Origin: a virus
IMG/VR virus record: IMGVR_UViG_3300017995_000002
Location: 1-39,407 of that record
Reading direction: 5' to 3' (one strand)
Length of the DNA stretch: 39,407 nt
In this document: positions 1-39,407 of the stretch, one piece after another
Layout: each line of letters begins with the position of its first letter
Numbering within the stretch: position 1 is the stretch's first letter
Program-made: the position numbers and the translations under genes
The notes under the pieces: generated by a model
The model's database searches: none
What the model was told of the DNA's origin: nothing
Seen by the model: only the letters and a program-made list of their open reading frames with translations

Positions 1-117
1 CGCCGCTCGCCGCGAAGGCCGGGCCGCCGTCGGCTTCCGTGCCACTCCCTGAGAAGGTCTCGGCGCCAGCTCCAGTGAACGCCGGGCCGCCGTCGTGCTC
101 GGCGCCCGTGCCGCTGA
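1..117. repeat. Terminal direct repeat, left copy (circular closure)
   Basis: Bases 1-117 are identical to 39291-39407. The open frame of the 419-aa repeat protein continues in phase across the join, so the repeat most likely reflects overlap at the closure of a circular or circularly permuted genome rather than a physical terminal repeat. It lies inside a 63-bp tandem repeat array, so the number of repeat units at the join may be mis-assembled. Confidence 0.9.
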
Positions 118-899: not shown

Positions 900-1304
900 C
901 TAATGCTCTTTGGCCTGGTAGGTCAGCGAGGTAACGGACACGGTCGCGCCGGTCTGGATGGCTGTCGAGTTGAGATTCAAGTCTGAGCCAGACGTGCCAA
1001 CCGAGCCATCACAGACCACAGTCGTGCCGTCCGACTTGAGGCAGCGAAACCAAACTGCGGTCCCAGTCGCCACGGCCGTGCCTGATGCGATCGCGTTGGC
1101 AGTAGCGATGCCGGCAACGGCCGAGCCGAAAGCTGGATTGCCAAAAGTGAGCGTAGCGAGCAAGGTCTGCGACGTAACGGCCGTGTTGGCGTTCGCCGGC
1201 TGTGGCGTCGTGTAAATTTCAAGCGTGCCGCCATTGAGCAGCGCGGTGAGCGCGTTCGCTTCTGCGTTCGCGGCTGTGTCAGAGATGTAGGCGTTACTGG
1301 CCAT
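900..1304 (-). CDS. Small phage structural protein (134 aa)
   Basis: The protein begins MASNAYISDTAANAEANALTALLNGG and continues with a beta-rich, Ala/Thr-rich sequence (QTLLATLTFGNPAFGSAVAG). This layout is common in small phage virion proteins encoded near portal genes. No catalytic motif or membrane segment is visible. It overlaps the 3' end of the portal gene by 11 bases and is followed by the repeat protein at 883, so all three are co-transcribed. A decoration or head-fibre role is inferred from position. Other family members are known to me only as hypothetical phage proteins. Confidence 0.75.
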   Translation of the reverse strand: MASNAYISDTAANAEANALTALLNGGTLEIYTTPQPANANTAVTSQTLLATLTFGNPAFGSAVAGIATANAIASGTAVATGTAVWFRCLKSDGTTVVCDGSVGTSGSDLNLNSTAIQTGATVSVTSLTYQAKEH

Positions 1305-3435
1305 CGTCTACCTCTTCGATTCTCTCGATACGGCCGTCTTTGTCGCGGTGAACGACTTGCGACCGTCGAGCGGCTCGCGGCGTTTCGATTTTCACGTTTA
1401 CGGGCGTCGGCTGCTGAGGCCTGCCTGATCGCTCCAATAGCCTTCTGCCGACTTGGCTCAACATGGTCGCCGCGGAAACCAGCGACTCTTTGTTGCTCGC
1501 CTGCGGCTCGGTCGAGTCTGCCGGCGGGCCGGCCGCGGCTGGTGCCGGCGTCACTTGGCCAGGCGCTGCAGCCGGCGGCGTTGGCGGCGGCGGCTCGTCC
1601 TCTTCCTCTGTGCGGTCGATGATGTCCTTATAGGCCTTCTCAGGGTACATCGCCTCAATTAGCTCTTCGGCGTTGTCGATGCCAGGCAGAGCTTTCATCA
1701 GCGCGAAAATGCCGGCGCGCTCGTCGATGCCGTGCACGCCGCCCATTTTGTCGCCGAGCGTGAGCGCCTGCACAATAGCCTGGACGATTTGCAGCATGTC
1801 GCCCTCGCGGATGGCTGGGAACGTCACCATGACGTTGATGGCCGCCGGCTGCGCCGGCTTCGCAGCCTTCGCCTCAAGGACCGTGACATACCGCATCTGG
1901 CCATCAACTAGCCTGCGCTCGCGCTCGCGGATGACCAGGCCGGCGATGTCACGTTGGCTCATTTCGCGGCGCCTCAGAGCTTCGCGCAGCTTGCCCGAGG
2001 GCGCGGCTTTGCTCACGCCGAGCACATACTTTCCGATGACAGCCAGGTCCTCGCGCCAGGCGTCCTGCTTTGCCAGGAAGGTCAGCTCGGTAGGCCGGTC
2101 GAGCGTCGTCGCGGTCGCGAGGTTCCCCGTCGACACATCGGCCATGAAGGTCTCGGGAACGCCGACAACCATGCACACCATGAGCTTGAGCTGGCGGACT
2201 TCCTCGGGGTTGGCGCCAACGCCGCGCTGCTGGAAGGGCGACACCTTGGTGCCAGTGCCCGACACGAAGGTCGCGCCGGCGACGGCCGGCGGGTTGGTGT
2301 CCCAGATGGGCGCCTGCGGCCCGATGGTGGTCTCAAGCTGCTGCTTCAAGCCCTCGATGGCTTGCTGGCCGCCCTTGGTCGTGACGGTCATCGAATACTG
2401 CGCGAGCGCCTTCTGCACGGTCGTGCAGGCTTCCAGGAACCTGCGCGCTTCCTTGGCCCAGTCAAGCGCCGGGTAAATGATCGGACAGCCGAAACGCCAC
2501 TTGCTGACCTTGCCGCACTTGCGGTGATAGATGGGCGTGTCCCACATCACAGGGAAGCTGCCGATTCTGTCGGGCTTCGCCTTGGGCTCGTAGCCGATGG
2601 CCGGATACCAGGCTTCCTTGGTCTGCGTCGACACCTGGCCGTTAGCGCTGTCGAAGTTGCGCTCAGTCCAGAGCCGGCGGTACAACCAGGGCGTGTCCGC
2701 ATCGTCCGGGTCGGTGATGATGTCGAGCACTTCGGTCGCGTCGATGGTGCGCACGTCGACGCTGCCGGTGTTGTCGGTGTCAGGGAAGAAAATCCAGAAC
2801 AAGTTGCCGTCGTAGTACTTCTGCTCTTCGGCCTCAGTGAGCGCGATCGGGCCGAGCGTGCGGGCGTTACGCTCAAAGAACTCCTGCAGCACTTCGTTGG
2901 CGTCCTCGTCGTCTGAGGTGACCTCGACGCCGCGGCCGAACACATAAGTGCTCGCGATCTGAATAACTCGCCGGATTAACGGGTTTTTGATGAAATACAG
3001 CCGCGAAATGAGCATGATTTGCTGGATGCCCCAGCGGCTGAACTCCATCCAGCTGAGATTGATTTCACGGCGCCACTCGACGTTTTGCAGCGCCAGCTCG
3101 ACGTCGCCAAAGGCGCCCTGGCTCACAATCGGATTCGCCTCGCGGACTTTGACACCGGACAGCGTCGGGTGTTCGGCCAGGGCCACGCGGCTGCCCTCGG
3201 GAAGCCACGGCCCAGCGCCAGCCATCTGGCGCGCCTCGACCAGCTCGCAGGCACGCTCTAAGTTTTCCTGGTAGTTGCGCGCCTCGATGACGCGCTTGTC
3301 GCTGAAGGCCTCGACCAGGGCGTTCTTGAGCGCGCGCGATTCCGGCGTCTCGGTTGGCTGGCGTGGAGTGAGACGGCGTGCCGTGCGGACAAGCAAGCCG
3401 TAGAGGAAGCCTTTAACCCGCAGTTTGATGGTCAC
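1294..3435 (-). CDS. Portal protein
   Basis: 713 aa, GTG start at 3435 (VTIKLRVKG). The dodecameric portal forms the DNA entry channel at one capsid vertex and docks terminase. Portal-family features include a core with YFIKNPLIRRVIQI, a wing/stem region with WxLYRRLWTERNF, and the conserved segment VPETFMADVSTGNLATATTLDRPTELTF near residue 440, where the family carries a comparable G-N-x-x-T-A motif before the crown. The long C-terminal tail is Pro/Ala-rich (EEEDEPPPPTPPAAAP) and then basic. The gene is separated from TerL by the glycosyltransferase island rather than being adjacent, which is unusual. Downstream genes overlap it. Confidence 0.9.
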   Translation of the reverse strand: MTIKLRVKGFLYGLLVRTARRLTPRQPTETPESRALKNALVEAFSDKRVIEARNYQENLERACELVEARQMAGAGPWLPEGSRVALAEHPTLSGVKVREANPIVSQGAFGDVELALQNVEWRREINLSWMEFSRWGIQQIMLISRLYFIKNPLIRRVIQIASTYVFGRGVEVTSDDEDANEVLQEFFERNARTLGPIALTEAEEQKYYDGNLFWIFFPDTDNTGSVDVRTIDATEVLDIITDPDDADTPWLYRRLWTERNFDSANGQVSTQTKEAWYPAIGYEPKAKPDRIGSFPVMWDTPIYHRKCGKVSKWRFGCPIIYPALDWAKEARRFLEACTTVQKALAQYSMTVTTKGGQQAIEGLKQQLETTIGPQAPIWDTNPPAVAGATFVSGTGTKVSPFQQRGVGANPEEVRQLKLMVCMVVGVPETFMADVSTGNLATATTLDRPTELTFLAKQDAWREDLAVIGKYVLGVSKAAPSGKLREALRRREMSQRDIAGLVIRERERRLVDGQMRYVTVLEAKAAKPAQPAAINVMVTFPAIREGDMLQIVQAIVQALTLGDKMGGVHGIDERAGIFALMKALPGIDNAEELIEAMYPEKAYKDIIDRTEEEDEPPPPTPPAAAPGQVTPAPAAAGPPADSTEPQASNKESLVSAATMLSQVGRRLLERSGRPQQPTPVNVKIETPRAARRSQVVHRDKDGRIERIEEVDDGQ

Positions 3436-3621: not shown

Positions 3622-3797
3622 CGGAAGAGCAGCCACCAGGCCAGTACCAGGAACGCCAGCAGCGGCATGATGCCGCGCCAGATTTCCAGCGGCGCGTTGG
3701 TGTCGTTCGGGTCGAAGTCGCCGCGGAAGACCACGTACATCGCATGCAGGAACACGATGAGCAGCAAAGCTCCGAGCGATCGCGCGGCCAAGATCAT
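3618..3797 (-). CDS. Small two-span membrane protein, holin-like candidate
   Basis: 59 aa, start MILAARSLG, overlapping the glycosyltransferase stop as ATGA. Two hydrophobic helices (about residues 4-24 and 42-58) are separated by an acidic loop (RGDFDPNDTNAPLEIW), and the chain ends in Arg. Size and topology fit a class II holin, but this is not specific and there is no lysin beside it; the predicted lysin is at 19.8 kb. It could also be an accessory membrane protein of the glycan-modification island. Confidence 0.6.
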   Translation of the reverse strand: MILAARSLGALLLIVFLHAMYVVFRGDFDPNDTNAPLEIWRGIMPLLAFLVLAWWLLFR

Positions 3798-4690
3798 ACG
3801 ATTCCGAAAAGATCCAGCCCGCGGAAAGTGTCGCGGCCGTGCTCGTGCACGAAACGCTCGCACTCGGCGATTTGCCAGGGCTCGCGGTCGACGTCGAGCC
3901 ACTCGGCCATCAGCTCTTTGTAGGGCTCAACCCAGGCCGGCGGCACGGGTGCGTATGCCCACGGTCGCCCCGTAAGGTTGTAGATGGCCTGGTTGTAATA
4001 GTCGTCGATTTCCTTGGTCGACTTCTCAGGCCAGCGCAGCCGCTCGACCATTTTATAGAGGGCGTGCTTGGCGCGCAGTCGCCGCTCGCTCGCGCCCCAC
4101 AAGTGCAGGATGCCGCCCTCGCGGTGAGTGATGGGCTTGTAAGGAACGAGCTGCAGCCCCATCGGCTCGCGATGGTGGTAGCGGTCGCCGGCCCAGTGCA
4201 GCCTGGGCGTGTCCTCGAATGCCACGGTCGTCGAGCGCTCACCCCACAGGCCGTTAAGGTGGTACTGGTGCACGCCGCCGCGCAGGTTGAAGAGCGGCAG
4301 CTCAAGCCGGCGCTGCACCAGCTGGCGCGGGTTGAAGCGCTCTATCCATCCACGGATGTTCGGCAGCTGGTTGGCGGTCAGGACTTCGTCGGCGTCGACG
4401 AGCGCGATGTGCGTGGCGCCGGGCCCATCGGGCGCGTCTGGCCGGCCTTTAATGCGCGCCAGCTCCAGCAACGCCTGGCGATGTTCCATTTCATCCCACG
4501 GCCGCCGGTCGGTCCCTACCACGGTGACACGGTTGGTTGCCGTGGCCACGCGGATGGCGATGTCGTGTGAGTTGTCAGTGCAAGCGTGCAAGAAGACGAC
4601 GACCTCGTCACACCACATCAGCGCGACGCGCAGGCTGAGGCCGAGACACCAGCCCTCGTTTCTAACAGGCATTAAAGCGACGAGCTTCAT
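3794..4690 (-). CDS. GT2-type glycosyltransferase
   Basis: 298 aa, start MKLVALMPVRNEGWCL, chosen because its ATG overlaps the upstream stop as ATGA. The N-terminus has the GT-A hallmark of family 2 enzymes (VALMPVRNE), followed by a nucleotide-binding fold and the DxD-type metal motif in HIALVDADE (residues 99-102). A His/Trp-rich acceptor half follows (LHWAGDRYHHREPMG, GGILHLWGASERRLRAK). It probably transfers a sugar from a nucleotide-sugar donor; the acceptor is unknown. It is the last enzyme of an island of several glycosyltransferases and two FkbM-type methyltransferases, so the products may act together on one glycan. Confidence 0.85.
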   Translation of the reverse strand: MKLVALMPVRNEGWCLGLSLRVALMWCDEVVVFLHACTDNSHDIAIRVATATNRVTVVGTDRRPWDEMEHRQALLELARIKGRPDAPDGPGATHIALVDADEVLTANQLPNIRGWIERFNPRQLVQRRLELPLFNLRGGVHQYHLNGLWGERSTTVAFEDTPRLHWAGDRYHHREPMGLQLVPYKPITHREGGILHLWGASERRLRAKHALYKMVERLRWPEKSTKEIDDYYNQAIYNLTGRPWAYAPVPPAWVEPYKELMAEWLDVDREPWQIAECERFVHEHGRDTFRGLDLFGIV

Positions 4691-4893
4691 ATTAGAGTGT
4701 AAGGGCACTTCTTGTCCTGCCCTGCTGCCGCGCGCTCCCACGGCGGGCGACCATTCTGCAGAATGTGCTCATCGCAGTCGACACAAAACTGGTCAGGCTC
4801 GCGGCCTGGTCGCGTTACGGCTTGTTCTCCATTCATCTGGCGACCACAGCAGCCGCAGAAGTTCACGTCTGGGTACTGCTCGGTTTGGCTCAT
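4687..4893 (-). CDS. Small zinc-finger-like protein
   Basis: 68 aa (MSQTEQYPDVNFCGCCGRQMNG). Two CxxC pairs, FCGCCG and FCVDCDE, spaced about 23 residues, form a likely four-cysteine zinc site. The ATG overlaps the sigma-factor stop and its own stop overlaps the glycosyltransferase start, so it is translationally coupled to both. Its proximity to a sigma factor makes a regulatory role possible, but small zinc ribbons of unknown function are common in phages. Confidence 0.65.
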   Translation of the reverse strand: MSQTEQYPDVNFCGCCGRQMNGEQAVTRPGREPDQFCVDCDEHILQNGRPPWERAAAGQDKKCPYTLI

Positions 4894-5414
4894 AACACAT
4901 CTTCCAGTCTGCGCACGCCGCGCAGGGCCAGCTCGGCCCGAAGCTGGTCGAGCGCCTTGTGCTCCAACACGCAGGCGCGGCTTCCCAGGCTGCGCAGTCC
5001 GATGGCGGTCGAGACTTCGGCCTGGCTGAAGTCTTTGAAGTAACGCAGCTTGATGATAGTCTGCAGCCGCGGCGGAAGTGACTCCACAGCTGCCAGCAAA
5101 ATGCTCGATGTCGGCGATGGCGTCATCACGACCGAGACGTCGACGTTTTCAATCCGTTCCGACGCTCGGGGTGAGTCGTGACGGGTCTTGTCACGGCTGA
5201 GCATGTCAGCCATCTGGCCGCGCACTCGGTGTTTCGCGAATGCCCAGAATGGGACCTTGCGGCTAGCATCGAAGCGCATCGCGGCCTTGACGAGCCCCCA
5301 CACTGCCGCGCTCTCGAAGTCCTGCAGCGGCGTGTGCAGCGTACTCGCATAAGCTATCGAGGCTTCCTTGAGAGCTTGACTCATGTGCTCAGCCGCCAGC
5401 TGTGCGTTTCTCAT
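4890..5414 (-). CDS. RNA polymerase sigma-70 family factor
   Basis: 174 aa. Residues 32-74 match sigma region 2 (DFESAAVWGLVKAAMRFDASRKVPFWAFAKHRVRGQMADMLSRD), including the core-binding helix and the -10 recognition helix with the FAKHRVRGQM signature. A short variable linker (75-105) replaces region 3. Residues 111-162 match region 4 (LPPRLQTIIKLRYFKDFSQAEVSTAIGLRSLGSRA), with a helix-turn-helix. The two-domain layout and size resemble group 3/4 or FliA-like factors. It overlaps the FkbM gene by 26 bases. It probably redirects host core polymerase to phage or glycan-related promoters; its targets are unknown. Confidence 0.85.
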   Translation of the reverse strand: MRNAQLAAEHMSQALKEASIAYASTLHTPLQDFESAAVWGLVKAAMRFDASRKVPFWAFAKHRVRGQMADMLSRDKTRHDSPRASERIENVDVSVVMTPSPTSSILLAAVESLPPRLQTIIKLRYFKDFSQAEVSTAIGLRSLGSRACVLEHKALDQLRAELALRGVRRLEDVL

Positions 5415-6009
5415 CGTCTAAGACGATTAGTGTATCCCAGTGGCCGCGGCCCGTCCCTTGGATGCTCAGCTCGTGCTGCACGACGCGATAGCCGAACGTG
5501 GCGAGCCGAGCGAACAGCTCCGAGTAGTACGTGCCGTCGCGGATGTCGGGCTTATCCCAGTCGTGAAATTCGACGCTGATCTGCCGCGCGATCGGGCCGG
5601 GCCACTCGTTCAGCACATCGAACTCGGCGCCCTCGATGTCGAGCTTAACCAGGTCCCAAGGGACGCCGAGCTGGCAGATACTGATGCACATAACGTCGAG
5701 TTTGCGCATGTCGTAATACTGTGGCAGCTCGGACAGGAAGTTGCCGTGCCCGGTCGAGCCCATGAAATAGCCAGAAGTCTCGCGCGGTTTTCCCACCAGA
5801 GCGACGCGGCGAAAGTACACGCCCCTGAGGTCAGCCGGCGGCCCCATCATTTCCGGGTCGGGGTCGAGCGCAAGAATCGTACCATTCGGCCGTAGGTTGA
5901 AAATGCCGCGGGTGAAGTCGAAGTCTCGACACCCGGCGTCGAGCGTGCGCGGCGTCCACGGCAGCAAGTCGACGTCGATGGTGTGGCTGGCGATGTTTTG
6001 AAGGTTCAT
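5389..6009 (-). CDS. FkbM-type SAM-dependent methyltransferase
   Basis: 206 aa from MNLQNIASHTIDV; the ATG overlaps the upstream stop as ATGA. Motif I is DAGCRDFDF (residues 24-32), followed by acidic motif II ILALDPDPEM. The FkbM hallmark VKLDIEGAEFDVL lies mid-protein, followed by SVEFHDWDKP. Such enzymes usually O-methylate sugars or carboxylates. Its place among glycosyltransferases suggests methyl capping of a phage- or host-directed glycan, which is inferred. A second FkbM-type gene lies at 7258-7860. Confidence 0.85.
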   Translation of the reverse strand: MNLQNIASHTIDVDLLPWTPRTLDAGCRDFDFTRGIFNLRPNGTILALDPDPEMMGPPADLRGVYFRRVALVGKPRETSGYFMGSTGHGNFLSELPQYYDMRKLDVMCISICQLGVPWDLVKLDIEGAEFDVLNEWPGPIARQISVEFHDWDKPDIRDGTYYSELFARLATFGYRVVQHELSIQGTGRGHWDTLIVLDDEKRTAGG

Positions 6010-6470
6010 AATGGCAAGTCTAGCTGCAGCCAGTCCTCGTATTCGCCAGTAGTCTTCAGCTCGGCGAAGTCTGCGCGCAGCGTCTGGCTTTCGAGCCAAA
6101 TGGCGTACTCCAGAGGCGTGCGCAGGCGCCACACGCTACCCAGCTCCCCGCTTGCTGAAGTCTCCCGTTCGAGCTGGTCGCCCGCTTCGTCGAGCACTGG
6201 CGTCAACATCCCGAGGTCTTTCATGTCTGAAAACCGCGCGCTGATGCTCTGGTACAGCTTCCCGAACCGTGTAACGTACTCGTCGGCAGTGGAATTGCGT
6301 CGCCCCTCGGCATCACAGTGCGGCGAACCATGCAGAAGCCAGCGCTGGATGCGGTAAATCTCATTTGCGCGCCGCGGCTTGCTCGGGTTGGCCTTCGTGC
6401 TGTGCGGCTCGCCGCCGTGCTTGCCGGCCGTGATGTCCTCGGCAAGCTCTTCCGGGTCGAAACTCAGCAT
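6006..6470 (-). CDS. Hypothetical phage protein, possible DNA-binding fold
   Basis: 154 aa (MLSFDPEELAEDITAGKHGGEPHSTKANPSKPRR). A polar, helix-rich sequence follows (ANEIYRIQRWLLHGSPHCDAEGRR, YVTRFGKLYQSISARFSDMKDLGMLTP), then VWRLRTPLEYAIWLESQ. The middle could form a winged-helix-like module, but I cannot assign a family. It sits inside the glycosyltransferase/methyltransferase island between a DxD glycosyltransferase and an FkbM gene, overlapping the latter by four bases. Confidence 0.6.
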   Translation of the reverse strand: MLSFDPEELAEDITAGKHGGEPHSTKANPSKPRRANEIYRIQRWLLHGSPHCDAEGRRNSTADEYVTRFGKLYQSISARFSDMKDLGMLTPVLDEAGDQLERETSASGELGSVWRLRTPLEYAIWLESQTLRADFAELKTTGEYEDWLQLDLPL

Positions 6471-10350: not shown

Positions 10351-10604
10351 TGAGCAGAGCGATAGCGCGTCTTTATGTCGACATGCAAGAGGGTTGCAGT
10401 CCAGAGGTCGGCCACTTTCTTGTGACCAAAGGAGCGCGCGGGTTCGGATCAGCTTACTTGATCCTGGCAGCACGAGAGTCGCGCCGGACTCCTCGACGCT
10501 TCTACTTGCGTTGTCAGCGTGGGTATACGCCTCAGGAAGCAATTGCTTCTGGCCAATGGTGGGAGTTGCGATGGTACAGCCGCAACCGCGCTAAATCGGG
10601 CTGA
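10350..10604 (+). CDS. Plus-strand small phage protein (moron-like)
   Basis: 84 aa, GTG start (VSRAIARLYVDMQEG), encoded against the genome's main direction and overlapping the 3' end of TerL by 14 bases. The central segment GSAYLILAARESRRTPRRFYLRCQR and the ending GQWWELRWYSRNR match a pattern I recall from small hypothetical phage proteins of Proteobacteria (xAYLVLxxRxVxRRxPxxY ... WxxxWYxR). No function is known to me. Because it is convergent with TerL and bounded by a 16-bp direct repeat, it looks like an independently acquired gene. An upstream plus-strand promoter is not clear. Confidence 0.55.
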   Translation: MSRAIARLYVDMQEGCSPEVGHFLVTKGARGFGSAYLILAARESRRTPRRFYLRCQRGYTPQEAIASGQWWELRWYSRNRAKSG

Positions 10605-12060
10605 TCTGAATCAGGCCGCCCATCGTGTAGGTCTGCTCCCGCGGCACGATGTGACAGAAGGCCAGGATTTCGGCTTCCGCTCTGTCGGGTGAACTAACTC
10701 CACGTTTCCGCGCGTCTTCCTTGGGCTCGACCTCGATGAGCCCGCGGCTGGTCTCGTGGTACATCACGCCTGAGAGCTGCGCCTCGGTCTCTTCGTCGAG
10801 GGTGTCGGCCACGTGGCAGACGTAATCTGCTTTGTACATATCGCGCAGCCGGAAGTAGGCCTCGGCTTTGGCGTTCTTGAACTGCTCAGGGTCGAGCGGC
10901 ACGCGGCCGCCATTGAAGCCGAAGACCTCGAAGCCCAGGTCCGCCAGGTGCAGCGCGAAGTTGTAGCCGATACCGACGATGTCAACGACAACCGGGCCGA
11001 GCCGGTAGGGCTGGTTTCGCTTGAGGTCGTTCAGCCACTTGGCGACGGCGCCGCGCGGGTCAGCTTCCGACCAGGCGCCGCGGGCCACTATGATGCCGTT
11101 CACCCGCCCGCACGCGGTCGTTTCGTCGTCGCCCGGGCCGGCCACGTCGATGCCGACTTGGATCCATGAGCCCGTTTCTCGCGCCCTAGTCAGCTCGCGG
11201 TCGGTCGGTTCACGCCTGGCGCGCTCAATCCATTCGAGGCTGAAGACGGCGTACTCCGACTGGCTCGGGAACTCGCCCAGCACGCGGCTGATGTAGCGCG
11301 GATTGTTCGGTCCCCATCGGATGAACTTGTCGAGCACCCACCAGCGGGTGACCAGGTACGGCACGGGCGCGTATTCGAGCTGGTCTGCCGGCAGCGCCTG
11401 CAGCTGCTCGATGGTGAACGGCCGGCCGGTGTCCGGGTTAAGCAAGTTCGGCGTGTCAAAGGCTGAAATGGTGATGCAATTGGTCGCCGCTCGGCCGCGG
11501 GTGAAGTCCTCGAAAAACGGGCCGCTCGGCACGGTCGGGTTTCCGAGCTTGATCTGCCGCACGCGGCCGGCTGACCGGATGCCCTCGACCGCGTCCCAAA
11601 CGTCGGCGCCGATACCGGGCGACTCGTCGGTGATGATAAGCACGTCCTTGCCGTGGAAGCCTTGGGCGTTGACGCCTTTGGACGCGCTGAAGCCCAGGCC
11701 GTAACGCTCTTCGTTGATGCGCAGGCCGGTCGTCGAACACTCAGGTAAACGCAATAGAGAGCGTTGCCTGGCTAGCTCGATTTCCTCCCACATCAGTTTG
11801 ACCTGGCGCAGTGTCGGCGCGATGGTAAGCACCTTGCCGCTTTCATACCTGGCCAGGTGGTGAAGGACGCAGCCGGAAACGGCGTAGGTCTTCCCTGAGC
11901 CGTGGCAGCCCTTCACCGCGGTCGATCGGCTGGCGGCTGCCGCGATAGCTATTTGCTCTTGGCGAGCCCACAGCGACCGCCGCAGAATGGCCTGCTGGAA
12001 TCCTACGGGCTCGCGGCTGTAGGTCTCGAGTTGTTCTCGACTATACGCTGGAGCTGCCAT
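10591..12060 (-). CDS. terL: Terminase large subunit
   Basis: 489 aa. The ATPase/nuclease motor packages DNA into the prohead. Walker A is GCHGSGKT (residues 51-58), Walker B VLIITDE (140-146) with the catalytic Glu at its end. An RNase H-like nuclease follows, with acidic motifs in VGIDVAGPGDDET and VVVDIVGIGYN and the late AEAYFRLRD motif. Length is normal for the family. It overlaps TerS by 20 bases. The last codons are duplicated 258 bp downstream (10335-10350), where a plus-strand gene intervenes before the next minus-strand gene. Confidence 0.95.
   Translation of the reverse strand: MAAPAYSREQLETYSREPVGFQQAILRRSLWARQEQIAIAAAASRSTAVKGCHGSGKTYAVSGCVLHHLARYESGKVLTIAPTLRQVKLMWEEIELARQRSLLRLPECSTTGLRINEERYGLGFSASKGVNAQGFHGKDVLIITDESPGIGADVWDAVEGIRSAGRVRQIKLGNPTVPSGPFFEDFTRGRAATNCITISAFDTPNLLNPDTGRPFTIEQLQALPADQLEYAPVPYLVTRWWVLDKFIRWGPNNPRYISRVLGEFPSQSEYAVFSLEWIERARREPTDRELTRARETGSWIQVGIDVAGPGDDETTACGRVNGIIVARGAWSEADPRGAVAKWLNDLKRNQPYRLGPVVVDIVGIGYNFALHLADLGFEVFGFNGGRVPLDPEQFKNAKAEAYFRLRDMYKADYVCHVADTLDEETEAQLSGVMYHETSRGLIEVEPKEDARKRGVSSPDRAEAEILAFCHIVPREQTYTMGGLIQISPI
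10593..10608. repeat. 16-bp direct repeat, copy 2 (within TerL 3' end)
   Basis: AAATCGGGCTGATCTG on the plus strand; on the minus strand it encodes the TerL C-terminal residues QISPI and reaches into its stop codon. Exact match to 10335-10350, 258 bp away. Confidence 0.85.
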
Positions 12061-33210: not shown

Positions 33211-34602
33211 TTAGCTGCCGGCGCCAGTGGATCCGACTACCGAGCGGCCGTCGATTTGCGCCGCGCCCATGACCGTGACAATTTTCATGTCCTGATCCAT
33301 GGTGTAGAAGTCGCCCATCATCGGCTCAACGCCGCCGCCGATGCGCTGCGTGTTCGGAACCTTCTGGTAAATCTGCGGCGTCTCGAAGCCCTGCAGCCAT
33401 CCGACCTCGACGGCCGGGCGCATCTGAGCCATTGGGTCCATCACGATGAACCAGAGGGTCTGCTTGATGTTGCCAGCCGCGCCCGAGGCCACGATCGGGA
33501 TATAGGGGTCGAGCACCAGCTCCATGTTTTGCAGCGCCCAGTTGCCCACCTGGACGAGCTGCGCCGGGAAGTTGGCCGAGCTGAGCGTGCCGCCTTCGAC
33601 GGCCACGTAGCTGGTCAGCATCGTCTTCAAGTTCTGGGCGGTCGCGGTCAAGCTGGGACCGTAGACCAGGATGGGCTTGCCGGTCATCAGGATGGGGTCG
33701 CCGCCCGAGTCGAGCATGCCAGCCAGCACCTTGAAGGCGTCCTGGATGCCTTGGATGCTCAGCGGCGGGTTGTTGGAAGCCGCCCCGTAGGTGGTCGTAA
33801 TGAGGTTCTTGTAACCAGAGCTGAACAGGGTCGAGCTGAGCCCAGAGCTGCCAACAAACTGCGAAGTGATGAACTTGTGGATACCGCGGTTTCCGGCGAT
33901 GGCCAGGCGGTTCGACAGGTCCTTGAAGATGCCCAGGTCGTCGTTGACGAACGCCCGCCAGTTGACCGAGGTCATCGCATGGTAGAGCTTGGGCTGGTAC
34001 TGGATGGGCGCGGTCGAGGTCGTCGGCCCGTAGGTGGCGCCGTCCTGCGGGGTCGGGCCATAGAGAGCGCGCTGAGGCGGCGGCGCCGCGGCGTCCATCG
34101 CGGTCAGCGGCGTGACGACGCCGTCGAGCAAGTAGCGGCTCACGATGCGGAAGTCGCGCAGCGTGTGAATCTTCACCAGCCCTTTGTTGGGGATGGGATA
34201 GGCGTTATAGAAGCCGTAGTACATGCGGTCGAGCACGTCGACAAAGAGCGACTGGTAATCGGTAACGCTCATCGTTTCGCGCAATCCCAGCAGATTACGG
34301 CCGCCCGGGTCGCCATAAAGGCCCGGGTACTTTTCGATCAGGTGCGCCACGGCCCATTCGTTCTTGGGCCGCATGGCTTCCTTGACCAGGAACGGGTCAA
34401 CGCGGCCAGCGAGGGCGTCGGCATAGAGCCGAGCAGCCGCGCGGACGCGACGCTCTTGGACGGCGCCGGCCTCGCGCTGTGCCGCGGCGAAGCCCATGGC
34501 GCCCAGAGTGCCGTTGACTTCGCCCTGGTTCGAGAACTGATACGGCAGCGCGGGAAGGTTCTCGCCCTTCAATCCCGCGGCTTGAAAATCGAGTTGCATC
34601 AT
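33211..34602 (-). CDS. Major capsid protein (Mu gpT-like / HK97 fold)
   Basis: 463 aa (MMQLDFQAAGLKGENLPALPYQFSNQGEVNGT). Capsid-like segments include TMSVTDYQSLFVDVLDRMYYGFYNAYPIPNKGLVKIHTLRDFRIVSRYLLDGVVTPL, WRAFVNDDLGIFKDLSNRLAIAGNRGIHKFITSQF and LVLDPYIPIVASGAAGNIKQTLWFIVMDP, consistent with the HK97-fold Mu-T-type family. It follows the protease and decoration-type genes in the usual order. Expected to be the most abundant virion protein. Confidence 0.85.
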   Translation of the reverse strand: MMQLDFQAAGLKGENLPALPYQFSNQGEVNGTLGAMGFAAAQREAGAVQERRVRAAARLYADALAGRVDPFLVKEAMRPKNEWAVAHLIEKYPGLYGDPGGRNLLGLRETMSVTDYQSLFVDVLDRMYYGFYNAYPIPNKGLVKIHTLRDFRIVSRYLLDGVVTPLTAMDAAAPPPQRALYGPTPQDGATYGPTTSTAPIQYQPKLYHAMTSVNWRAFVNDDLGIFKDLSNRLAIAGNRGIHKFITSQFVGSSGLSSTLFSSGYKNLITTTYGAASNNPPLSIQGIQDAFKVLAGMLDSGGDPILMTGKPILVYGPSLTATAQNLKTMLTSYVAVEGGTLSSANFPAQLVQVGNWALQNMELVLDPYIPIVASGAAGNIKQTLWFIVMDPMAQMRPAVEVGWLQGFETPQIYQKVPNTQRIGGGVEPMMGDFYTMDQDMKIVTVMGAAQIDGRSVVGSTGAGS

Positions 34603-34635: not shown

Positions 34636-35040
34636 TTAGCCGCCGGTCGTGATTTCGACGTTGGCCGCGGTGTCGGTCGCGCCAGCGCTGACAGCGACAT
34701 AGTTCGGGTCGAGATTGCCGAAACGGGTATTGCTCGAATTGGCGTCGATGGTCAGCCCGGTGGTCACGTTGGTGGTCGAGTCGAGCGTGCCGGTGGCGTA
34801 CAGCGCATCGCCCGGGTTGATTTTGTGCGTCGTCTGCGGCGACTCGGCTGTCTGGCCGACGACAGTCGTGGCAAACGTGCCGTTGAGCAAAAAGGTAGTG
34901 CCGCCGGTCAGGCTCGAATAGTCGTCGAGCGCGAACGCCGGAATGACGCCCAGCAGAACCGGGTCGCCGCTTTTGACCGTGGTCGGGCACAGCGCAAAGC
35001 GCCGGCTCGTCGGAGTCCCTGTAAAGACCTGGTTTTTCAC
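34636..35040 (-). CDS. Capsid decoration-type protein (DUF2190-like)
   Basis: 134 aa, GTG start (VKNQVFTGTPTSRRFALCPTTVKSGDPVLLGVIPAFALDDYSSLTGGTTFLLNGTFATTV). KSGDPVLLGxIPAxALDxxxS and the Thr/Asn-rich C-terminus match small proteins next to Mu-T-type capsid genes that decorate the shell (DUF2190 style). It starts just below the protease stop. Confidence 0.75.
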   Translation of the reverse strand: MKNQVFTGTPTSRRFALCPTTVKSGDPVLLGVIPAFALDDYSSLTGGTTFLLNGTFATTVVGQTAESPQTTHKINPGDALYATGTLDSTTNVTTGLTIDANSSNTRFGNLDPNYVAVSAGATDTAANVEITTGG

Positions 35041-35041
35041 G

Positions 35042-36673
35042 TTAGGCTACCTCTCTCCCGCGGGCCGCAAACTTCGCGGCCTCCTTGGGCAGGCCCAATT
35101 CCTCGAAGACCTCGCGGAACTCGCGGCGGTCCTGCTTCGCCGCTTCCTTCAGCCGCTTAGCTTCCTTGGGCTTCAGCACGGGCTGGCTGCCCATGCCGAC
35201 GACGCGCACGCCGGTCTCAGAGAGCACGGCGCCGATGCGCTTGCACTCGGCTTCGATGCGCTCGACCAGCTTTTTGGCGTCCAGCTCGCCGGCGGCGGTC
35301 GCTGGGATCCCTTGCGCCAGTACGTTGTCGATAACGTACTGCTTGGCACTCTCGCGCAGGCTCACGCCGGCGAGCGCGCGGTTTGCTTCGACGATCGCGT
35401 CGCCGCGCAGAGCGCGCTCACGCAGCGGGCCAGTCGATTGGTCGATTAGCTTCTGTACTTCCTTGAGGTCCATGTCAGCTCCTTGCTGCTGGGATTCGGC
35501 GCCGCGCGCCGCTTCGGTTAAAATCATTCCGCCGGCGCCGGCGCGGGTAACCACGTCGACCGACTCGGCGCTGGTTAGCTCGCTCAACACCGGCAGCCCG
35601 TCTCGCTTCGTGCCGCTCTCGGCTTTGCCTGAGGCGCGAATGCTCATCCCGACGTGGGCCGCTTTTTCCTCAACCATCTGCCCGTGGTCTGCAAAGACCT
35701 TCATGCGAGCGTAGAGGCCTGGCCCTTTGGCGTGCGACTCCTGGTAGGCGGCGTCGGTCGTGAGCACGCCGGCGAGATTCGCCACGTCGCCCTCAGGCCG
35801 CTGAGCTTCCTCGGCCGCGGTCGGGTGGTTGAGGTACACGTGCGTGCCAGCTTTGAAAACCTTCGGGCCGTCACGCTGCAGCACTTCCTTGGGATAGAAA
35901 GCTGAGCTGCCTTTGCCGGGCGCGATGAGCTTGATTTCATAGTCGGCCTTGGCTTCCTTGAGGACGATGGTTTCCATCGTGGTGGCCGACTCAACCAGGC
36001 GAAGCCCCCCGGGATCCGACCCTACGCCAGTTGCGTGTTTTGACTCCTTGGAGTCGTCGCCGCCGTTCTGCCAGGACTTCGGCAAATACTTGGTCCAGCC
36101 CTTTTTCTTGGCGATGCGGATGATGTTCGCCTTGAGGGTCGAAATGCCGAAGTTGGCCGAGCCCGCACGCCCCATCGAACGAACCGCGGCCATGACGTCG
36201 CCCGGCTTCAGGATCGGGAAGCTCTGGCCTTTGCCGGCGAAGCTGCCAGCGTCGGCCCCGGCGCGCTCGGCCTTACTGATGAAACGCTCGTAGAGCGGCA
36301 GCTCGGTGTACAGCTTGTCGCGCTTGAAGGCCGACTCGAGTGAGGCGTAATGGTCTTCGTCGTCGGCTTCCTCTTCGTAGCTGGTGCGCGGCATGACGTC
36401 GACGGCGTTTTCGACGTCGATCGCGGCCACCTGCTTGCCGTTGGTGGTGGAGAACTCATAGGCCGCCTTCATCAGGTTGCCGTTGCAGCTGTAAATCACG
36501 TCGCCCGACTGGTCATCGCCGAAGATGTCGACGATGTAGTAGTACTCGTCGTTGTCAGAGCCGATGTCGCGCAGGGCGTCGGAGAGCCGGCTGCAGATGT
36601 CTCGCTGAGAAAGCTGGGTCGCGTCTTCCTGAAGCCGGAAGGCAACCGCCTGGAAACCTTCGGTAAGCCGCAT
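35042..36673 (-). CDS. Prohead maturation protease / scaffold-type protein
   Basis: 543 aa. An N-terminal region of unknown role (residues 1-215, with KPGDVMAAVRSMGRAGSANFGISTLKANIIRIAKKKGWTKYLPKSW) precedes the protease-like domain (YEIKLIAPGKGSSAFYPKEVLQRDGPKVFKAGTHVYLNHPTAAEEAQRPEGDVANLAGVL... MVEEKAAHVGMSIRASGKAESG ... ESVDVVTRAGAGGMIL). A coiled scaffold-like C-terminus follows (LIDQSTGPLRERALRGDAIVEANRAL, then EAKRLKEAAKQDRREFREVFEELG). HVYLNHP and GMSIRASG/VDVVTRAGAGG are typical of Mu-I/U35-like maturation proteases. The first head gene behind the divergent promoter. Confidence 0.8.
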   Translation of the reverse strand: MRLTEGFQAVAFRLQEDATQLSQRDICSRLSDALRDIGSDNDEYYYIVDIFGDDQSGDVIYSCNGNLMKAAYEFSTTNGKQVAAIDVENAVDVMPRTSYEEEADDEDHYASLESAFKRDKLYTELPLYERFISKAERAGADAGSFAGKGQSFPILKPGDVMAAVRSMGRAGSANFGISTLKANIIRIAKKKGWTKYLPKSWQNGGDDSKESKHATGVGSDPGGLRLVESATTMETIVLKEAKADYEIKLIAPGKGSSAFYPKEVLQRDGPKVFKAGTHVYLNHPTAAEEAQRPEGDVANLAGVLTTDAAYQESHAKGPGLYARMKVFADHGQMVEEKAAHVGMSIRASGKAESGTKRDGLPVLSELTSAESVDVVTRAGAGGMILTEAARGAESQQQGADMDLKEVQKLIDQSTGPLRERALRGDAIVEANRALAGVSLRESAKQYVIDNVLAQGIPATAAGELDAKKLVERIEAECKRIGAVLSETGVRVVGMGSQPVLKPKEAKRLKEAAKQDRREFREVFEELGLPKEAAKFAARGREVA

Positions 36674-37045: not shown

Positions 37046-37342
37046 TCAGGGCAGGTAGGTGATGGCTACCTTGTCGCTTCCGCTCGCACCATAGACGTAA
37101 ATCGTCGTCAGGTCGTAGCGGCCCTGGTCGAAGTCGACTCGCGGGAAGATGAGACTTGTCCCTTTCGCGATCGTGGCGCCGCGACTCGCTCCGACGTTGG
37201 AATCTCCGACGCGCACGTCGGCGCCGTTCGTGCTCGGCGCGGTGAACTGTATCCAGGTGGCCAGAGCCGGCGCGGTGTTCGTTGAGACCGCCGTGGCCGT
37301 TCCATTCGGCGTGATGTCAGCAATCGTCTGAGGGACGTTCAT
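37046..37342 (-). CDS. Small virion-type protein (98 aa)
   Basis: MNVPQTIADITPNGTATAVSTNTAPALATWIQFTAPSTNGADVRVGDSNVGASRGATIAKGTSLIFPRVDFDQGRYDLTTIYVYGASGSDKVAITYLP. Beta-strand-rich and small-residue-rich; similar short proteins follow MuF genes in phages and are probably capsid fibres or decorations. Preceded by the MuF gene, followed by the plus-strand gene in convergent orientation. Confidence 0.7.
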   Translation of the reverse strand: MNVPQTIADITPNGTATAVSTNTAPALATWIQFTAPSTNGADVRVGDSNVGASRGATIAKGTSLIFPRVDFDQGRYDLTTIYVYGASGSDKVAITYLP

Positions 37343-37355
37343 GGCCGGAAGTATA

Positions 37356-38684
37356 TCACTGTTCCGGCGTCGCCTGGTAGCTCAAGCTGCAGCGGCAGTT
37401 TGGATGCGCCGGCGGCTCGAAGTCGCCGGTGTCGAAGGGCGCCTCGGAGTCGATGAAGCCGGCGTCTGCGTTCATTTGGCAGTCGTCGCAAGCGTCGGGC
37501 TCGCAGTCCCAGCTCTTCTCAACCGGGCCGTTGCCGCCGCGCCAGTCGGTCACGTAATCGCGGCTGCCGCCGTGGTAAGCCTGCGAAACGGAGTCTAGCG
37601 CGACGGTCTCGGAGCGTGGCACCTGGTCTGCCGGCGCGTCGGTCCAGCTGTTGAACTCTCGCTGCACAGCCTGCACAAGGGCGCCCAGGCTCATGCTGGC
37701 CGCGGTCGCGGCGTCAATGGCCGTGCCAATGCGTGCGACGCTGGTGTCGTCGACGCCGGCGTCGGTCGCCTGCAGGTAGCCGTCATCCGGGCCAGGCAGC
37801 GCCGGCAAGGCCGGCGGCCGTTTCGCTTCCTTGGCGACTGCGAGCTGTGACAGCGCGAAGCGAGCGCCGGCTTTGTAGGCCTTCAGCCGGATAGCGCGAG
37901 CCGTCTTCTGGAACTTCTCATCAGGTCCAGCAATGGCGAGCTGCGCAAACTGCTTTATCATGCCGTAGTCGACCAGTAGGTTGCCGCCCTGCTTCTTGAT
38001 GGCCTTGACGCAGCGAACACGCTGGCGCGCCCAGCGATCGCGCAGCGCGTCGCGATAGGCGCCGACGAGCGGGTCGATTACGGCCGCCTTCTCAGCTCGC
38101 AGCAGGTGCTCGGCGAGGCGAAGGGTCTGCTGAGCAAATTCGGTTTCGAGCGACTCGCCGACTGGGTTTTCGACTTTCTTCGGGTTGGTTCCCACCAGGT
38201 GCGCGGCCAGCTTCGGGTTGACATACCAGCGAAACGCCGACTCCGCAGTGTTGATGTAGCTCACCGCGCCGTGGTGGTACGGCCACTTCTCGTTCTGAAA
38301 ACAAAACGCGACATCAGCGAGCAGCTGCTGGATGAGCGGCCCGTGCGTCACGACCAGCACGCTCACCTGGCCGTCTTCCTCGTCCTGTTTCTTTTCAGCT
38401 TTAGAAGCCGCGGCCAGGATGGCCTTCCAGGCCTTCGCTGGCGTCGAGTCGGGCTGCAGCCGGGCGTCAATGACCAGCGGCGTGTCGCCGCGCCGCACTT
38501 CCTGGGCAGTCTCAAGCGCTCGCGGAAAGTCGCTGCTGATGATGACGTCGGGGTTGACCTCGGCCAGCTTCATGAACTTTCGCATGACCTTGGCCTGGCG
38601 CCGGCCGACGTCGTCGAGCCGGCGGGTCGAGTCCATCTGCGGACCTTCGTCCGTCAGACAGTGCCGCATCAAGTAGAGCTTCAC
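37356..38684 (-). CDS. SixA-like histidine phosphatase fused to MuF head morphogenesis domain
   Basis: 442 aa, GTG start. Residues 1-155 match the histidine-phosphatase (SixA/phosphoglycerate mutase) superfamily: LYLMRHCLTDEG with Arg7-His8 (RHC in place of RHG), DxTRRLDDVGRRQA, SDFPRALETAQ (Arg55), VLVVTHGPLIQQLL (His114). All four catalytic residues (R7, H8, R55, H114) are present. From about 175 on, helices and the C-terminal motif (DCEPDACDDCQMNADAGFI ... GDFEPPAHPNCRCSLSY) are Mu gpF-like (PPxHPNCRC). MuF proteins are minor head proteins that enter with the capsid and can carry toxic or enzymatic domains. The GTG is overlapped by a CACTTGCGCAAGTG palindrome. Confidence 0.85.
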   Translation of the reverse strand: MKLYLMRHCLTDEGPQMDSTRRLDDVGRRQAKVMRKFMKLAEVNPDVIISSDFPRALETAQEVRRGDTPLVIDARLQPDSTPAKAWKAILAAASKAEKKQDEEDGQVSVLVVTHGPLIQQLLADVAFCFQNEKWPYHHGAVSYINTAESAFRWYVNPKLAAHLVGTNPKKVENPVGESLETEFAQQTLRLAEHLLRAEKAAVIDPLVGAYRDALRDRWARQRVRCVKAIKKQGGNLLVDYGMIKQFAQLAIAGPDEKFQKTARAIRLKAYKAGARFALSQLAVAKEAKRPPALPALPGPDDGYLQATDAGVDDTSVARIGTAIDAATAASMSLGALVQAVQREFNSWTDAPADQVPRSETVALDSVSQAYHGGSRDYVTDWRGGNGPVEKSWDCEPDACDDCQMNADAGFIDSEAPFDTGDFEPPAHPNCRCSLSYQATPEQ

Positions 38685-38923
38685 TTGCGCAAGTGTACAA
38701 CAGCTACGGCCGGAACGGGTTCCCAGTGGCGGATTTGTTGCGCCTGGTCGAGGGTGACGAGCTTACCAGGCGCCAGGCTGATAATCGTCGGCCGCCATTC
38801 AGTGCCGCATTTCGGACACTCCCAGGTGTCGACCGTGTCGAGCTTGCCGTCTCGCAGGTCCTTCGAGATTCGCCTGGTGCAGCAGTCGTCTGGATGAACC
38901 GTGTTAAGTAGCATCACAGCCAT
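38681..38923 (-). CDS. Zinc-ribbon protein (80 aa)
   Basis: MAVMLLNTVHPDDCCTRRISKDLRDGKLDTVDTWECPKCGTEWRP. CC (14-15) and CPKCG (36-39) give a likely zinc site; the rest is basic and hydrophobic (TIISLAPGKLVTLDQAQQIRHWEPVPAVAVVHLRK). Overlaps the 3' end of the repeat-protein gene by 10 bases and the phosphatase-MuF start by four (GTGA junction). Function unknown; possibly a virion or packaging accessory. Confidence 0.65.
   Translation of the reverse strand: MAVMLLNTVHPDDCCTRRISKDLRDGKLDTVDTWECPKCGTEWRPTIISLAPGKLVTLDQAQQIRHWEPVPAVAVVHLRK
38682..38695. promoter_or_regulatory. 14-bp palindrome CACTTGCGCAAGTG, possible fifth operator
   Basis: Perfect palindrome with the same TTGCGCAA core as promoters A-D, but inside codons (HLRK) and over the GTG start of the phosphatase-MuF gene, without a recognisable -10 box. 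It may be an operator within a transcription unit or a chance match. Confidence 0.35.
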
Positions 38924-39290: not shown

Positions 39291-39407
39291 CGCCGCTCGC
39301 CGCGAAGGCCGGGCCGCCGTCGGCTTCCGTGCCACTCCCTGAGAAGGTCTCGGCGCCAGCTCCAGTGAACGCCGGGCCGCCGTCGTGCTCGGCGCCCGTG
39401 CCGCTGA
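39291..39407. repeat. Terminal direct repeat, right copy
   Basis: Exact second copy of bases 1-117. Removing it gives a 39,290-bp circular unit. See the left copy for the assembly caveat. Confidence 0.9.

What the first reader, a model, noticed from the sequence alone, without database searches (positions are those of the whole stretch)
37356..38684. SixA-like phosphohistidine phosphatase fused to a MuF head protein
Residues 1-155 hold all catalytic positions of the histidine-phosphatase superfamily (R7, H8, R55, H114), with RHC replacing RHG, and the C-terminus carries MuF motifs (CxxC and PPAHPNCRC). MuF proteins with effector domains are known, but these are usually C-terminal toxins or other enzymes. 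An N-terminal SixA-like phosphatase could be packaged and injected to reset host phosphorelay or PTS signalling, or may act on nucleotides. I know of no description of this fusion.
Basis: partly seen in the sequence, partly recalled or inferred. Interest (0 to 1): 0.85.

Follow-up and report, generated by a model that had tools for sequence, protein, structure and literature searches.

The report
Phage head protein carrying a phosphatase
A group of uncultured phages carries an apparently working SixA-type phosphatase on the front of a protein that normally sits inside the virus head at the DNA gate, which suggests, but does not yet show, that the phage delivers a signal-erasing enzyme into the bacterium it infects.

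Summary
The 442-aa minus-strand ORF (38684..37356, GTG start) is a SixA-type histidine phosphatase (residues 1-157) joined by a flexible linker to a MuF minor-head domain (about 300-440). Both halves are supported by profiles, predicted fold and gene neighbourhood. It is not a one-off: IMG/VR holds about a dozen distinct fusions, and R7, H8, R55 and H114 are invariant in 18 phosphatase domains down to 25% identical. In related phages the same position between portal and head protease can instead hold MuF without phosphatase, a stand-alone SixA, a SixA with the MuF zinc motif inserted, or MuF with a PGM-like phosphatase that looks catalytically dead. A small Zn-ribbon gene precedes many of the SixA genes. 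No cultured phage searched (INPHARED) and no paper found has this fusion. MuF-borne enzymes are a known kind of predicted injected effector; the SixA cargo and its N-terminal position are new to it. Best reading: an active phosphatase placed in the head by MuF and ejected with the DNA to strip phosphohistidine from host proteins. Packaging, ejection and substrate are inferred. 'RHC' is only a lineage variant; most relatives have RHA.

The parts
37356..38684 (-). SixA-MuF fusion gene, 442 aa, GTG start (stop codon at 37356-37358)
38214..38684 (-). SixA-type histidine phosphatase domain, residues 1-157 (R7, H8, R55, H114)
   Evidence: Pfam 1.3e-13; TIGR00249 best NCBIfam hit, 51 bits, below its 74.5 cut-off; fold Z 20.1 to 1ujb
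38094..38168 (-). flexible linker, residues 173-197, pLDDT under 50; possible processing site (inference)
37359..38144 (-). helical part plus MuF domain, residues 181-442; MuF core about 300-438
   Evidence: phrog_2468 and phrog_2662; separate model pLDDT 85.7, pTM 0.80, matches minor capsid and head morphogenesis proteins in BFVD
37389..37490 (-). MuF zinc-type motif CxxC ... PPAHPNCRC, residues 399-432
   Evidence: near-invariant in A4 and A9
38681..38923 (-). 80-aa Zn-ribbon gene (CPKCGTEW...IRHWEP) overlapping the fusion start by 4 nt; conserved neighbour of the SixA gene
37046..37342 (-). 98-aa conserved small head-module gene downstream
   Evidence: counterparts by position in L001 and others; no significant family match
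35042..36673 (-). head maturation protease, used as the locus anchor for relatives
   Evidence: phrog_15531 1.4e-31, 52 relatives
34636..35040 (-). probable head decoration protein
   Evidence: position; phrog_122 E 0.13 only
33211..34602 (-). major capsid protein
   Evidence: Pfam Phage_capsid_4 1.2e-15
1294..3435 (-). portal protein; upstream of the fusion once the contig ends are joined
   Evidence: phrog_10963 3.9e-57; 117-bp terminal repeat
10591..12060 (-). terminase large subunit
   Evidence: phrog_2 9e-20

Best explanation
The gene makes a two-part minor head protein. The C-terminal MuF part docks on the portal inside the procapsid, as SPP1 gp7 does, and carries along an N-terminal, catalytically competent SixA-type phosphatase on a flexible linker. 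A few copies are packaged, leave the head with the DNA (perhaps after the linker is cut by the head protease) and act in the newly infected cell. There the enzyme forms a phospho-His8 intermediate and removes phosphate from phosphohistidine proteins such as HPr/NPr-type carriers, HPt domains or nucleoside diphosphate kinase, resetting host signalling or metabolism at the start of infection. Shown here: the fusion, its recurrence, the SixA fold, strict conservation of the catalytic residues, and purifying selection. Inferred: packaging, ejection, processing, phosphohistidine as substrate, and the particular target.
For: Fusion in the window, L001, L002, L006, L008, L011, L012, L014, L023/L024, L030, L044, L036-L038, L042/L043 and L080. 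R7, H8, R55 and H114 invariant in 18 domains with pair identity down to 24.7%. Foldseek top hit E. coli SixA, E 1.6e-8, TM 0.82 on the target; VIA Z 20.1, 150 of 156 residues, no cap domain. SixA (TIGR00249) is the best NCBIfam family for every SixA-type copy tested, and L026 and L051 pass its cut-off. dN/dS of the phosphatase 0.10-0.27 in the closest pairs. The head-protease tree holds a clade in which all 14 readable members carry SixA, fused or solo. MuF biology: SPP1 gp7 binds the portal, enters the procapsid in few copies and supports infection (PMC6316719); MuF is fused to many enzymes predicted to be injected (PMC5512222). SixA in E. coli is reported to act on NPr, ArcB (in vitro), PfkA and Ndk (PMC7948535, PMC12934123), and its His8 is essential.
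Against: No virion proteomics or enzyme assay exists. L025, L026 and L029 have a stand-alone SixA at the same locus without a detectable MuF domain in the fetched stretch, so the enzyme need not be MuF-borne to be kept. The window protein is below the SixA equivalog cut-off, and the superfamily acts on many substrates. One lineage (L033, L046, L054) has a histidine-phosphatase domain in its MuF protein that has lost RHG and the second His, so such a domain can have a non-catalytic role. The host is unknown.
Confidence: 0.45

Rival explanations
1. The phosphatase is active but works in the producing cell during the late phase or head assembly. It is made with the head genes and acts on a host or phage protein there; the MuF fusion is a matter of gene adjacency or of locating it at the portal, not of delivery.
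For: Stand-alone SixA genes at the same head-module position in L025, L026 and L029, with no MuF domain nearby; a conserved Zn-ribbon gene upstream of both fused and solo forms.
Against: Fusion to the portal-binding MuF domain is kept in most of the clade, and MuF-linked enzymes are otherwise predicted to be injected (PMC5512222).
Confidence: 0.22
2. The phosphatase is active and perhaps delivered, but its substrate is a small molecule (nucleotide, defence signal or sugar phosphate), so it acts as an anti-defence or metabolic enzyme.
For: The superfamily includes many small-molecule phosphatases (PhoE, RosC and MutT1-type domains are among the fold matches); CobC is a frequent second NCBIfam match; MuF-borne 2H phosphoesterases have been proposed to degrade nucleotide signals (PMC5512222).
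Against: Compact SixA-type fold without a cap; SixA is the best family for every copy tested; no PADLOC match.
Confidence: 0.22
3. The domain is a structural or binding module of the head without relevant catalysis.
For: The degenerate PGM-like domain in L033, L046 and L054 lacks RHG and the second His yet persists.
Against: All four catalytic residues are invariant in 18 SixA-type domains and present in L080; stand-alone copies keep them too.
Confidence: 0.08
4. The fusion is an assembly or frame artefact, or the MuF half is misidentified.
For: Pfam Phage_Mu_F is sub-threshold for the window protein (15.7 against 29.6 bits).
Against: Recurs in many independent contigs; both Pfam cut-offs passed within L006 and L036; the MuF-half model matches minor capsid and head morphogenesis proteins; correct neighbours portal, protease and capsid.
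Confidence: 0.02

Closest known systems
E. coli SixA phosphohistidine phosphatase (PDB 1ujb)
   Same: Compact fold (Z 20.1 over 150 of 156 residues), same catalytic set in the same register
   Different: Here it is the N-terminal part of a phage head protein; RHC instead of RHG; 51 bits, below the SixA equivalog cut-off of 74.5
SPP1 gp7 / Mu gpF (MuF minor head proteins)
   Same: C-terminal MuF domain with CxxC and PPxHPNCxC motifs, gene beside the portal and head protease
   Different: gp7 and gpF carry no such cargo; among cultured viruses Methanoculleus virus L4768 has a 269-aa MuF gene without phosphatase at this position
MuF polymorphic toxins and MuF-enzyme fusions (EFV ADP-ribosyltransferase, Apk2, PBECR, 2H, RelA/SpoT, PRTase, zeta)
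   Same: An enzyme joined to MuF, predicted to be delivered from the head
   Different: The toxins have MuF N-terminal and the toxin C-terminal with an immunity gene; here the enzyme is N-terminal, is a SixA-type phosphatase, and no fusion-specific immunity-like gene was seen. 'phosphatase' does not occur in the main text of either the polyvalent-protein or the MuF-toxin survey
Salmonella phage record OR850995 (3,660 bp)
   Same: SixA-like stretch, 27-34% identical
   Different: Short unannotated record with no MuF match; possibly host DNA (inference)

Membership tests
Histidine phosphatase superfamily, branch 1 (PF00300) | Pfam gathering score reached | tested here: met
   51.4 bits against 21.7; 12 of 12 fusions match at 1e-3
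Histidine phosphatase superfamily, branch 1 (PF00300) | Catalytic R-H, second Arg and second His | tested here: met
   R7, H8, R55, H114 invariant in 18 domains; third residue of RHG is C or A
Histidine phosphatase superfamily, branch 1 (PF00300) | Superfamily fold | tested here: met
   Foldseek and VIA-align to many members, Z up to 20.1
SixA (TIGR00249 equivalog) | Score over curated cut-off 74.5 | tested here: not met
   Window 51.2 bits; relatives L026 79.9 and L051 77.7 pass. Filed as SixA-type, not as a SixA equivalog
SixA (TIGR00249 equivalog) | Compact single domain without cap insertion | tested here: met
   150 of 156 residues of 1ujb aligned to model residues 1-161
SixA (TIGR00249 equivalog) | Phosphohistidine phosphatase activity | not testable with these tools
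   needs an enzyme assay
MuF / Phage_Mu_F (PF04233) | Pfam gathering score reached | tested here: not met
   Window 15.7 against 29.6; homologous fusions L006 (31.5) and L036 (42.8) pass
MuF / Phage_Mu_F (PF04233) | Homology to head-morphogenesis families and MuF-type fold | tested here: met
   phrog_2468 2.3e-6, phrog_2662 1.4e-8; BFVD minor capsid and head morphogenesis matches of the isolated half, E about 1e-5
MuF / Phage_Mu_F (PF04233) | Gene beside portal, before protease and capsid genes | tested here: met
   L002 and L006 directly; window through its 117-bp terminal repeat
MuF / Phage_Mu_F (PF04233) | Protein in the virion, bound to the portal | not testable with these tools
   needs virion proteomics
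MuF polymorphic toxin | MuF N-terminal, toxin C-terminal | tested here: not met
   enzyme N-terminal, MuF C-terminal in every fusion
MuF polymorphic toxin | Immunity gene downstream | tested here: inconclusive
   the small downstream gene has counterparts also in loci with solo SixA, so it is not specific to the fusion

The most novel reading that the evidence does not exclude
A phage-delivered phosphohistidine phosphatase: a virion-borne enzyme that erases host histidine phosphorylation (PTS carriers, HPt relays or Ndk) at the moment of DNA entry, in a lineage that keeps SixA at the head locus as a fusion, as a separate gene or with an inserted zinc motif, often next to a dedicated Zn-ribbon partner.
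Probability: 0.33. Interest if true: 0.85.

Novelty: new variant of a known kind. Interest (0 to 1): 0.6.

Why it matters
MuF proteins are a known carrier for predicted injected phage enzymes, but the catalogued cargoes are mostly toxins and nucleic-acid or nucleotide enzymes. A SixA cargo would mean that phages target histidine phosphorylation, the basis of two-component relays, PTS control and Ndk, as soon as they enter. It also shows cargo on the N-terminal side of MuF, and a natural series of architectures (fused, solo, inserted, degenerate) at one locus with which cargo function can be tested.

Tried and rejected
Genome scans for prophages failed: A1 and the head protease A3 gave no relatives in genome contigs, so hosts are unknown; the genome search cannot draw relatives for a virus record; no tRNA in the window. 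Hidden frameshift restoring RHG in L033 and L054: the other frames hold a different conserved short ORF, not an RHG motif, so rejected. RHC as a functional signature: rejected, Ala in 13 of 18 domains. Known defence family: no PADLOC match. PDB fold comparison of the MuF half gave only helical-bundle look-alikes, Z under 10, uninformative. Literature searches for phage SixA or histidine phosphatase with MuF, capsid or virion found no description of the fusion.

Full report
Observation. The window is a virus record of 39,407 bases. The ORF at 38684..37356 on the minus strand reads 442 aa from a GTG that overlaps the stop of the upstream small gene by four bases. Its first 157 residues match Pfam His_Phos_1 (1.3e-13) and E. 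coli SixA (phmmer 6.5e-6, residues 1-157, R7, H8 and R55 in identical register). Its C-terminal part matches head-morphogenesis families (phrog_2468 over 198-436, phrog_2662 over 303-438). Pfam Phage_Mu_F itself is below its cut-off for this member, but the homologous fusions L006 and L036 pass both Pfam cut-offs in one chain.

Structure. An AlphaFold2 model from twelve fusions (A4) has mean pLDDT 79, with a low-confidence linker at 173-197. Foldseek's best solved structure is SixA 1ujb (E 1.6e-8), and VIA-align gives Z 20.1 with 150 residues aligned out of 156. The MuF half modelled alone (A9, pLDDT 85.7, pTM 0.80) finds minor capsid and head morphogenesis proteins in BFVD; against the PDB it finds only generic helical bundles.

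Relatives. Scans of IMG/VR found fusions in L001, L002, L006 and, through the head protease next door, L008, L011, L012, L014, L023/L024, L030, L036-L038, L042/L043 and L044, then L080. Several of these are near-copies, so the number of distinct fusions is about a dozen. In 18 phosphatase domains (A5) with pair identities from 24.7%, only 14 of 165 columns are invariant and they include R7, H8, R55 and H114. In the closest pairs dN/dS of the phosphatase is 0.10-0.27. The window's phosphatase half is 60.7, 67.5 and 61.9% identical to L001, L002 and L006, against 37-39% for the MuF half. That is the pattern of a working enzyme under selection, not of a relic.

One locus, several architectures. 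Between portal and head protease, related phages carry MuF without a phosphatase (L010, L016, L020, L022, L031, L034, L035, L047, L053), a stand-alone SixA (L025, L026, L029), a SixA with the MuF zinc motif inserted before its last conserved segment (L049-L051), or a MuF with a PGM-like domain that lacks RHG and the second His (L033, L046, L054). On a tree of the head protease, a clade of 20 rows (support 86/95, under the starring threshold) contains 11 fusions, 3 solo SixA, 5 rows whose contigs stop too early to tell and a second copy of the window, and no MuF without a phosphatase; the L036/L042 fusions lie elsewhere on the tree. One gain with losses and several gains cannot be told apart. 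A small Zn-ribbon gene (DxCC...CPxCGxEW...IRHWxP) directly precedes the phosphatase gene in the window, L001, L002, L006, L012, L025, L029, L044 and L080; the pattern was not found in L010, L022 and L053, nor in L036, L042, L049 and some others. The pattern is ad hoc, but it suggests a two-gene cassette in the main lineage.

Genome context. The window ends share an exact 117-bp direct repeat, so the record is probably a complete circular map of 39,290 bp, although the repeat lies in a 63-bp tandem array. Read that way, the portal (3435..1294) precedes the Zn-ribbon gene and the fusion, as seen directly in L002 and L006, followed by a 98-aa gene, head protease, a probable decoration protein and major capsid.

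Known context. MuF proteins such as SPP1 gp7 bind the portal and are placed inside the procapsid in few copies; gp7 is not needed for assembly but only about 25% of virions lacking it are infectious (PMC6316719). MuF is fused to many enzymes predicted to be injected (PMC5512222), and MuF toxins carry the toxin on the C-terminal side (PMC5576092, PMC12226406). The word phosphatase does not occur in the main text of the polyvalent-protein or MuF-toxin surveys, no paper was found for this fusion, and INPHARED phages show only the MuF half or weak unrelated phosphatase matches. Among cultured viruses, Methanoculleus virus L4768 resembles the MuF and protease genes and has a bare 269-aa MuF gene at this place. 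SixA in E. coli dephosphorylates NPr and Ndk, with ArcB (in vitro) and PfkA also reported; its targets share no obvious motif (PMC7948535, PMC12934123).

Interpretation. The best reading is delivery of a SixA-type phosphatase by MuF docking at the portal. Shown: fusion, recurrence, fold, conserved catalytic set, purifying selection. Inferred: packaging, ejection, linker processing, phosphohistidine substrate, target. Against a simple delivery story stand the solo SixA genes without MuF; for the substrate, the sub-cut-off SixA score of this member leaves small molecules open. The claim 'it is a SixA' is therefore not made; 'SixA-type phosphatase' is. I rate it a new variant of a known kind (MuF-borne enzyme), with the SixA cargo and its N-terminal position as the new elements.

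Noticed in passing
L008:1573-3594 and L034:3220-4902: Insertions split the MuF motif exactly between HPN and C of PPAHPN|CxC; the L034 insert matches an intein splicing domain weakly (PF14890, 1.3e-4, below cut-off), the L008 one has no Pfam intein match and is called intein-like from its sequence only.
   Followed up: partly
L033:346-1962, L046:2434-4050, L054:3078-4679: MuF proteins with an inserted PGM-like histidine-phosphatase domain that has lost RHG and the second His; a conserved short ORF (about 70 aa) runs in another frame just before it.
   Followed up: partly
L049:5567-6406, L051:3744-4586: SixA-like phosphatase with the MuF zinc motif (CxxC...PPLHPNCTC) inserted inside the phosphatase domain, before its last conserved segment.
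   Followed up: partly
window 38681-38923 (-): Small Zn-ribbon gene conserved next to SixA genes whether fused or solo; possible partner protein.
   Followed up: partly
window 1-117 and 39291-39407: Exact 117-bp terminal direct repeat within a 63-bp tandem array encoding GTGAEHDGGPAF-type repeats; the record is probably complete.
   Followed up: partly
window 3794-4741 and 5389-6132 (-): Phage genes with weak glycosyltransferase (PF13704) and FkbM methyltransferase (PF05050) matches between portal and terminase.
   Followed up: no
OR850995.1 1192-1647: A 3,660-bp record named Salmonella phage carries a SixA-like stretch; it may be host DNA.
   Followed up: no
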